A stretch of 64,000 bases of DNA from Halorubrum aethiopicum (lineage in GTDB: Archaea > Halobacteriota > Halobacteria > Halobacteriales > Haloferacaceae): positions 2,728,001 through 2,792,000 of the forward strand of contig NZ_LOAJ01000001.1 of the NCBI RefSeq assembly GCF_001542905.1, given 5' to 3'. How positions within the stretch are numbered: position 1 is the stretch's first letter; each line of letters opens with the position of its first letter. Position numbers and translations under genes: made by a program. The notes beneath the pieces are model-generated. The model had not been told where the DNA came from. It did no database searches and was given only the letters and a program-made list of their open reading frames with translations. Below are positions 12,447 to 60,026 of this stretch, piece by piece.

Positions 12447-12540
12447 ATCGCTTTTCTCCGTCAGGAGGGCCAGTGCCGACCGCGACGGGCAGAGCATCGC
12501 GGAGGGCCTTTCACGCGTACGGAGGAGTCGCTCAATACAG

Positions 12541-12848
12541 GCGAAGGAGTGAGCGATCGCCCGAGCGGTGGCGCGCCGGTGAGTGGGTGCGACAGCACCC
12601 GCGAACCGCCCGCGAGGGACGCGGTGAGCACTCGGAGAGTGCGAACCGCGAGGCTGGGGAGGCGTGAGGTGCGGGGCTGTGCGGAGTGGGACTCAAAGGG
12701 GCAGTCGCGAGGGCGAAGCCCGGCGAAGCAAGCACTGGAAGGAGCGAGTGAAACGAGCGACTGAAGCGCACAGCGAGCCGCGCGAGCCCTCGCGACTGGG
12801 GCTTTGGAGACGTTCTCCGCACTCGAGTTCACCGCCCCAGCAACGATC
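12541..12848 (+). repeat. Structured dispersed repeat, long copy
   Basis: This 308-base non-coding element shares several blocks with the shorter minus-strand copy at 59899-60026: GGGGAGGCGTGAGGTGCGG, GGGACTCAAAGG, CTGGGGCTTTGGAGACG and CAACGATC. It contains hairpin 1 (12577-12608) and hairpin 2 (12621-12649), both of the form CGGT-GA-stem-loop-stem-GA-ACCG. A 13-base helix also pairs 12702-12714 with 12786-12798, again followed inward by opposed GA dinucleotides. The short copy lacks the two hairpins and the interior of the long helix. Reading frames across it on either strand are serine/arginine-rich and not acidic, so I do not call a gene. The remaining gaps (12447-12540 and 12849-13134) show nothing recognisable. 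Confidence 0.75.
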
Positions 12849-13134
12849 CCCTTCTACTCGTCCCAGTCTCCATCGAAACATCCGTATCACTGGCACGCGA
12901 GATAGCGCAGCCGTTTCGGAAGCGTCCGTGCCCGAGGGACTCTCGATCGGATCCGGTCGACGGAGCCTGGACGACGATTCAAACGGGATGACGCGTCAAC
13001 ACCCGACGTGACCTGAGAGCCGCCCCGCGGCGGTCGAGACGGGTGTGTGGCGACCCGCCACGGGATCGGAACCGCGCCGCCTGTTCGCCAACCGGTCCGT
13101 CACCGCGCCAGCGACGCGACCCTCGCCAGCGACG

Positions 13135-54274: not shown

Positions 54275-55195
54275 GTGAGCCGTTACCGAAACCTCTCGTT
54301 GTTCCTGCTCCTCGCCGCGGTGTGGGGTTCGGCGTTCATGGCGATCAACGCCGGGTTGGCGTACTTCCCGCCGGTGCTCTTCGCCGCCCTCCGGTACGAC
54401 CTCGCGGGCGTCGTCATGCTCGCGTACGCGGCCTACGTCGTCGACGACCCGGTTCCGCGCGGCCGCGGCGAGTGGAAGCTCGTGGCCGTCGGCTCGGTGC
54501 TCCTCATCGCCGCCTACCACGCCTTCCTGTTCGTCGGCCAGACCGACCCCGAGGTGACGAGCGCGGTCGCGTCGGTCACCGTCGGCCTCTCCCCGGTGTT
54601 GACGACGGTGTTCGCGCGGGCGTTCCTCCCCTCCGAGCGCCTGACGCTCCTCGGCGTCGTCGGCCTGCTCGTCGGGCTCGCCGGCGCGGGCGTGCTGGCC
54701 GCTCCCGATCCCTCGAACCTCGCGGCGGGCGGCACCGTCGCGAAGTTCCTCGTGTTCCTCGCGGCCGCGTCGTTCGCGCTCGGCTCCGTGCTCACGCGCG
54801 CGCTCGACGTGGGCATGGAGATCGAGACCATGGAGGCGTGGTCGATGCTGTTCGGCGCGGCGATCATGCACGTCGTCGCGGTCGGGCTCGGCGAGTCGAT
54901 GGCGGCGGTCGTCTGGACGACCGACGCGCTCCTCTCGCTCGGCTACCTCGCGGTGTTCGCGAGCGGGCTCGGCTACCTCATCTACTTCCGACTGCTCGAC
55001 CGGCTCGGACCGATCGAGATCAACCTCGTCTCCTACGTCGCACCCGTCTTCGCGGCGCTCTCCGGCTGGATCGTGTTGGACGAGGGGCTCACCCCGAACA
55101 CGGTCGCCGGGTTCCTGCTCATCTGTTGCGGCTTCCTGCTCGTCAAGCGGGCGGCGATCCGCGACGAGCTCCGTCGACGGGGCGTGGTGGCGTAG
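54275..55195 (+). CDS. DMT superfamily (EamA) permease
   Basis: The 306-residue protein has two EamA repeats with about ten transmembrane helices: LFLLLAAVWGSAFMAINAGL at the start of the first and FLAAASFALGSVLTRALDVG of the second, ending FLLICCGFLLVKRAAIRDEL. It is a drug/metabolite transporter of unknown substrate. GTG 54275 is chosen because an AAGCTTTTGA-type box lies about 27-34 bases upstream. It follows the ArsR gene on the same strand and may be its regulated partner. Confidence 0.88.
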   Translation: MSRYRNLSLFLLLAAVWGSAFMAINAGLAYFPPVLFAALRYDLAGVVMLAYAAYVVDDPVPRGRGEWKLVAVGSVLLIAAYHAFLFVGQTDPEVTSAVASVTVGLSPVLTTVFARAFLPSERLTLLGVVGLLVGLAGAGVLAAPDPSNLAAGGTVAKFLVFLAAASFALGSVLTRALDVGMEIETMEAWSMLFGAAIMHVVAVGLGESMAAVVWTTDALLSLGYLAVFASGLGYLIYFRLLDRLGPIEINLVSYVAPVFAALSGWIVLDEGLTPNTVAGFLLICCGFLLVKRAAIRDELRRRGVVA

Positions 55196-59898: not shown

Positions 59899-60026
59899 GA
59901 TCGTTGCCGGCGCGGAGACCGTCTCCAAAGCCCCAGCCTTTGAGTCCCGCCCCACACAGCACCGCTCCGCACCTCACGCCTCCCCGGCCTCGTCGCCACC
60001 GGAGGGGAGATCGGTCGCTGCTTCGC
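59899..60026 (-). repeat. Structured dispersed repeat, short copy
   Basis: Read on the minus strand, this 128-base copy matches the ends and the central blocks of the element at 12541-12848, in the same order. It lacks the two GA-hairpins and the interior long-range helix. One end lies about 95 bases upstream of the larA start. A CTCCCC/GGGGAG helix within it could form. At its far end CAACGATCGTTG (59895-59906) is a perfect 12-base palindrome. The remainder of the 59751-60120 gap contains no supportable gene; the larA promoter is at 60090. Confidence 0.75.

What the first reader, a model, noticed from the sequence alone, without database searches (positions are those of the whole stretch)
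12541..12848. Modular structured repeat with two identically built GA-hairpins
Seen directly: the long copy contains two hairpins of the form CGGT-GA-stem-loop-stem-GA-ACCG (12577-12608 and 12621-12649). The inner stems differ in sequence (GTGGGTGC/GCACCCGC and GCACTC/GAGTGC) but pair perfectly. A third 13-base helix (12702-12714 with 12786-12798) also has opposed GA steps on its inner side. Tandem G-A pairs are a standard RNA internal-loop motif, so conservation of architecture with different stem sequence points to RNA-level selection. The short copy at 59899 lacks exactly these modules. Either the element gains and loses RNA modules, or the short copy is a deletion derivative.
Basis: partly seen in the sequence, partly recalled or inferred. 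Interest (0 to 1): 0.72.

Follow-up and report, generated by a model that had tools for sequence, protein, structure and literature searches.

The report
High-copy mobile structured-RNA element of Halorubrum
The stretch is one of about 130 scattered copies, in this salt-loving archaeon's genome, of a small jumping element whose core keeps the same folded-hairpin shape while the letters in its stems keep changing; it looks like an undescribed, widespread family of mobile structured-RNA elements.

Summary
The stretch is one copy of a repeat with 127 covariance-model matches in this genome (all listed ones on the main chromosome), at least 150 in two other Halorubrum genomes, and copies in 51 of 52 Halorubrum genomes. 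Related forms occur in other haloarchaeal genera. Rfam has no match. Across 116 copies, 18 of 19 stem pairs change on both sides (486 such cells against 140 shuffled, 0/500). The GA/GA step of hairpin 1 is kept in 94 of 94 distinct sequences although its stem triplets are swapped. G-T outnumbers A-C in the stems of the + strand, which favours folding of that single strand, as RNA or ssDNA. Transcription was not testable. Four sites occupied here are empty in relatives. Best-preserved copies elsewhere are nested: a 430-550 bp inner unit (inverted repeats CGGGAGTGRGTRT, TATA boxes near both core ends, structured core) sits in either orientation inside a MITE frame with ends GGCTCTGTTGAAATCC. Those ends also flank an IS5-family transposase gene and give 8-bp target duplications. 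The window copy is an old copy with decayed ends; the copy at 59899 is a deletion derivative. What the fold does is inferred.

The parts
12490..12955 (+). approximate full extent of this copy; outer ends too decayed for an exact boundary or target duplication
   Evidence: alignment of 30 copies of the same genome; outer ends compared with intact elements
12530..12557 (+). 5' frame block TCAATACAGGCGAAGGAGTGAGCGATCG (consensus GGTCAGTACAGRCGAAGSAACGAGCGATCG)
   Evidence: conserved in own copies and flanking inner units in other species
12566..12830 (+). structured core (about 265 nt)
   Evidence: nhmmer match 12566-12847; folding z = -5.2
12573..12610 (+). hairpin 1: invariant GCGCC, proximal stem, GA/GA step, variable distal stem
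12620..12650 (+). hairpin 2: stem, GA/GA step, distal stem, GGA loop
12648..12701 (+). nearly invariant G-rich linker GAGGCTGGGGAGGCGTGAGGTGCGGGG...GGGACTCAAAGGGG
   Evidence: invariant columns of the 61-sequence alignment
12694..12806 (+). third stem-loop: CAAAG/CTTTG with opposed GGG, 13-bp helix, then short stems separated by GA/GA steps
12874..12919 (+). 3' frame block CGAAACATCC...GCAGCCGTTTCGG (reverse complement of consensus TGAAACGGCCG...GGGTGTTTCG)
12940..12955 (-). decayed outer inverted repeat, cf. GGCTCTGTTGAAATCC (weak)
   Evidence: reading
59899..60005 (-). short copy: lacks the third stem-loop and hairpin 1, hairpin 2 truncated

Best explanation
This is an old copy of a non-autonomous mobile element carrying a structured, probably transcribed, RNA-like core. 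Shown: the core exists in about 130 dispersed copies here and many in relatives; its hairpins covary strongly; four occupied sites are empty in relatives; the best-preserved copies elsewhere are nested, with a 430-550 bp inner unit (own inverted repeats CGGGAGTGRGTRT, TATA boxes near both core ends) in either orientation inside a MITE frame with ends GGCTCTGTTGAAATCC and 8-bp target duplications; the same ends flank an IS5-family transposase gene. Inferred: the frame is moved in trans by IS5-family transposase; the + strand is transcribed from about the first base of the core in TATA-bearing copies; the folded strand, with its GA/GA steps and G-rich linker, is bound by a host or element protein, and that binding keeps the fold selected and helps the inner unit persist, spread or be exchanged between frames. 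How the inner unit itself moves is unknown.
For: Copies and range. Covariation. Wobble asymmetry: HP1 distal stems 13 G-T to 1 A-C, third stem 14:4, 116-copy alignment 37:19, p = 0.022. TATA box at -26 to -21 from the core in about half of 68 copies of other species. Empty sites. Inner inverted repeats, 9 pairs in one genome with control counts 0-1; both orientations in the frame. Outer repeats with transposase: NF033579 E 5e-64, DDE_Tnp_1 4e-18. 8-bp duplications in coreless elements AAGACGAC and GGGGATCT and in core-bearing ones, 7 of 16 rows matching 6/8 or more, against about 1% in swapped controls. An IS5-family element with ends TGCTYTGTTGAATCC and perfect 8-bp duplications is in this genome in two identical copies.
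Against: No transcript data. Own-type copies have a TATA box in only 1 of 29, and TATA boxes lie at both ends, so direction is not settled. The window copy's own outer repeats and target duplication are not recognisable. The outer repeats of the IS5 element in this genome differ from the frame consensus, so the match is approximate. Copies at similar places in different species are no more alike than random pairs, so hairpins may be exchanged as blocks, which would exaggerate compensatory change. No protein gene recurs beside copies.
Confidence: 0.6

Rival explanations
1. The selected structure is single-stranded DNA, not RNA: hairpins of the + strand are recognised during transposition or replication, as in IS200/IS605-type or PATE elements.
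For: The wobble asymmetry fits ssDNA as well as RNA; many apical loops are C(GNA)G triloops, which from general knowledge are very stable in DNA; transcription is unproven.
Against: IS605-type elements and PATEs have no terminal inverted repeats and no target duplication (PMC3119063), whereas frames here have both. Strand along the chromosome looks mixed in the list (by eye). No TnpA/TnpB gene recurs nearby.
Confidence: 0.2
2. The hairpins persist through a mutational process (template switching within palindromes, or gene conversion that swaps whole hairpins) with little selection on structure.
For: Identical hairpin-2 modules recur with different hairpin-1 modules in different species; two copies share an identical 502-bp inner stretch in diverged frames.
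Against: GA/GA is never lost or flipped to TC/TC in 94 of 94 hairpins; G-T exceeds A-C, which strand-symmetric processes do not predict; single-stranded linkers are nearly invariant.
Confidence: 0.1
3. The copies have been taken over by the host for a chromosomal task (organisation, segregation, transcription boundary) and are no longer chiefly mobile.
For: Present in nearly every Halorubrum genome; in this genome no listed copy lies on the two smaller replicons; few plasmid matches.
Against: Sites differ between species; no consistent orientation to genes; identical young inner units exist.
Confidence: 0.1

Closest known systems
MITEs of IS5-family (ISH1-like) insertion sequences
   Same: terminal inverted repeats shared with a transposase-bearing element, 8-bp target duplication, too short to code
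   Different: carries a strongly covarying structured core inside a second, inner inverted-repeat unit
PATEs and small mobile repeats (SMR) of Haloquadratum walsbyi (PMC3119063)
   Same: numerous transposase-free haloarchaeal elements with palindromes; one mobile element nested in another at a preferred place
   Different: PATEs lack inverted repeats and duplications; SMR-A are about 110 bp; neither is described there as a covarying fold
HEARO / OMEGA RNAs (IscB, TnpB) and haloarchaeal sotRNAs (RF02656, RF02657)
   Same: structured RNA in dispersed mobile elements, many copies without a protein gene (HEARO from memory)
   Different: no Rfam match to any of these families and no associated nuclease gene
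Bacterial ERIC/BOX/REP-type intergenic repeats
   Same: short intergenic repeats with palindromes and many copies (from general knowledge)
   Different: longer, multi-hairpin architecture with a conserved GA/GA motif and TATA boxes; no sequence relation tested

Membership tests
MITE of an IS5-family element | terminal inverted repeats like those of a transposase-bearing element | tested here: met
   met for 16 of 272 core-bearing hits with both ends recognisable and shared with the 1314-bp transposase-bearing element L280; NOT recognisable in the window copy itself
MITE of an IS5-family element | target-site duplication of the parent's length (8 bp) | tested here: met
   7 of 16 rows match at 6/8 or better, against about 1% in swapped controls; not in the window copy
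MITE of an IS5-family element | no transposase gene of its own | tested here: met
   inner and outer repeat pairs 430-660 bp apart; no recurrent ORF
PATE (palindrome-associated transposable element) | no terminal inverted repeats and no target duplication | tested here: not met
   both present in intact copies
Structured non-coding RNA family | covariation supporting the fold | tested here: met
   18 of 19 pairs change on both sides, 0/500 shuffles reach the score; also in other genera
Structured non-coding RNA family | transcribed | not testable with these tools
   only TATA boxes at a fixed distance in part of the copies
OMEGA RNA / HEARO / sotRNA | match to the Rfam models | tested here: not met
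   no match at gathering score in the window or in 13 loci; only chance-level hits to other families at relaxed threshold
OMEGA RNA / HEARO / sotRNA | linked tnpB or iscB in at least some copies | tested here: inconclusive
   no recurrent neighbour cluster among 747 ORFs near sampled copies; not every copy examined

The most novel reading that the evidence does not exclude
A previously undescribed class of archaeal mobile RNA elements: a self-contained, TATA-flanked structured-RNA unit with its own inverted repeats that spreads by inserting, in either orientation, into a preferred site of another (IS5-type) mobile frame, with the folded strand itself needed for spread.
Probability: 0.3. Interest if true: 0.88.

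Novelty: new variant of a known kind. Interest (0 to 1): 0.72.

Why it matters
If the core is transcribed, Halorubrum cells make the same fold from over a hundred loci, with an unusually clear covariation record for a mobile element. That makes testable what a structured RNA does for a transposase-free element, and gives haloarchaeal genome annotation a family that Rfam lacks.

Tried and rejected
Rfam at gathering and relaxed thresholds: no family. Viral contigs, 22-mer: none; phage records: none; plasmids: only Halobaculum halophilum and Haloarcula rara. A cis-regulatory role tied to gene orientation: no strong bias (+- 30, -- 26, -+ 25, ++ 20). An autonomous version with an ORF between core halves: none seen. 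A first search for outer inverted repeats by simple matching failed in own copies. First covariance model R1 had a poor structure because of misaligned stems and was replaced by R2. The HP2 regex was faulty and is not used. Copies at apparently shared sites were tested for descent and are no more alike than random pairs. Several literature searches found no description; this covers open-licence papers only.

Full report
Observation. Both GA-hairpins and the 13-bp helix are present at the stated positions. The inner stem of hairpin 1 contains one T-G pair, so 'perfect' is slightly too strong. The 265-nt core folds far better than dinucleotide shuffles (z = -5.2 on the + strand, -4.3 on the - strand), and each hairpin does so alone.

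It is a family. A search of the same genome gave 40 scored places, and further queries added more. All own-genome matches that were listed lie on contig 1; none on the two smaller contigs. At about 0.46 kb each this would be roughly 2% of the chromosome (inference). 51 of 52 genus genomes have it. An exact 22-mer hits more than 118 places in named genomes, almost all Halorubrum, plus Halobellus captivus and a few MAGs. In a sample of 145 genomes of the class, 38 match, and other genera hold up to 52 copies in which the linker CGGCTGGGGAGGCGTGTGG...GGGTGGGACTGAAAGGGGC and the closing GGGGCTTTC are kept while stems differ. Rfam has nothing.

The structure is selected. In 94 of 94 parsed distinct hairpin-1 sequences a GA lies on both sides of the distal stem, while the three pairs outside it are TCC/GGA, GGT/ACC, TGC/GCA, GAC/GTC or CGG/CCG in most. 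The 3' complement of the 5' triplet directly follows the second GA in 74 of 95, against 23 when triplets are shuffled among copies (maximum 38 in 2000); within this one genome it is 26 of 28 against 9.7. On the 116-copy alignment 94% of cells pair, 18 of 19 pairs change on both sides, 486 cells change on both sides against 139.5 shuffled, and slid controls pair only 28-45%. This alignment was fitted to the structure and leans towards it; the hairpin-1 swap test does not depend on it. Copies from other genera covary too. On the + strand G-T exceeds A-C in hairpin-1 distal stems (13:1), in the third stem (14:4) and in the alignment (37:19, p = 0.022). A double-stranded constraint would give equal numbers, so the + strand is probably what folds. 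RNA and ssDNA are not separated by this. Caution: hairpins seem to be exchanged as blocks between copies, because identical hairpin-2 modules accompany different hairpin-1 modules and copies at similar sites are no more alike (74%) than random pairs (76%).

It is mobile. Joined flanks of five own copies were searched in 18 relatives; for four of them relatives have the same neighbouring genes with no insert. The relatives are too diverged to show a target duplication. No gene-orientation preference appeared, and neighbouring ORFs show no recurrent transposase.

How it is built. In one Halorubrum genome two copies share an inner stretch of 502 bp that is 100% identical while both outer flanks are diverged. 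The inner unit is bounded by CGGGAGTGRGTRT in opposite orientation. In that genome nine such pairs lie 431-548 bp apart, with control counts of 0-1. Outside it lie conserved frame blocks (GGTCAGTACAGRCGAAGSAACGAGCGAT on one side, CTGAAACGGCCG...TGCTTCTTGATCG on the other), and the inner unit is found in both orientations relative to them. A frame without inner unit exists (L295). The frame ends in GGCTCTGTTGAAATCC. These ends also bound elements without any core, two of which have exact 8-bp duplications (AAGACGAC, GGGGATCT), and one 1314-bp element with a 273-aa IS5-family transposase. Of 16 core-bearing rows with both ends recognisable, 7 show 8-bp flanks matching in at least 6 positions, against about 1% in swapped controls; one element is counted twice. 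L257 is an intact example: GAGTTTTT, 643-bp element, GAGCTTTT. This genome itself carries two identical 935-bp IS5-family elements with ends TGCTYTGTTGAATCC and perfect 8-bp duplications, one on the chromosome and one on contig 2, so a possible transposase source is at hand.

Transcription. In other species 35 of 68 copies have a TATA-like box 15 to 60 bases upstream, concentrated at -26 to -21 from the core, the usual spacing for a start near the first base of the core. A similar box lies 28-32 bases beyond the other end, so transcription of either strand is possible. Own-type copies have it in 1 of 29. No expression data were available.

Verdict. Shown: a very numerous mobile element with a covarying structured core, nested in an IS5-type frame. 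Inferred: that the fold acts as RNA, that it binds a protein, and that this helps the unit persist or spread. The window copy is an old copy with decayed outer ends, and the short copy at 59899 is a deletion derivative.

Noticed in passing
L085, L111, L103, L125, L178 (3' side of the core): tandem partial repeats of about 50-70 bp made of the core's last bases (CAAAGCCCCAGYCGCTCGG...), in some loci with a TATA box, next to full copies
   Followed up: no
L265 1501-2773, L277 1501-2040, L284 1501-2153: elements with the same outer inverted repeats but other cargo, e.g. a 238-aa membrane-like protein, without transposase or core
   Followed up: partly
G000 contig 1 at 1585924-1586733 and contig 2 at 82797-83606 (L298, L299): two identical 935-bp IS5-family elements with 8-bp duplications GACGAGCG and TCTCGATC, apparently recent
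   Followed up: yes
L086, L036, L039, L049 (third stem-loop): extra perfect hairpins inserted into the third stem-loop, like expansion segments
   Followed up: no
G177 contig 2 at 54489-54937; G076 contig 1 at 924784-925039: pairs of core copies in inverted orientation a few hundred bases or less apart
   Followed up: no
third stem-loop, consensus: two-base-pair steps alternating with GA/GA steps and a GAA loop (GG GA GC GA GC GAA GC GA GC GA CC), an unusual periodic helix
   Followed up: partly
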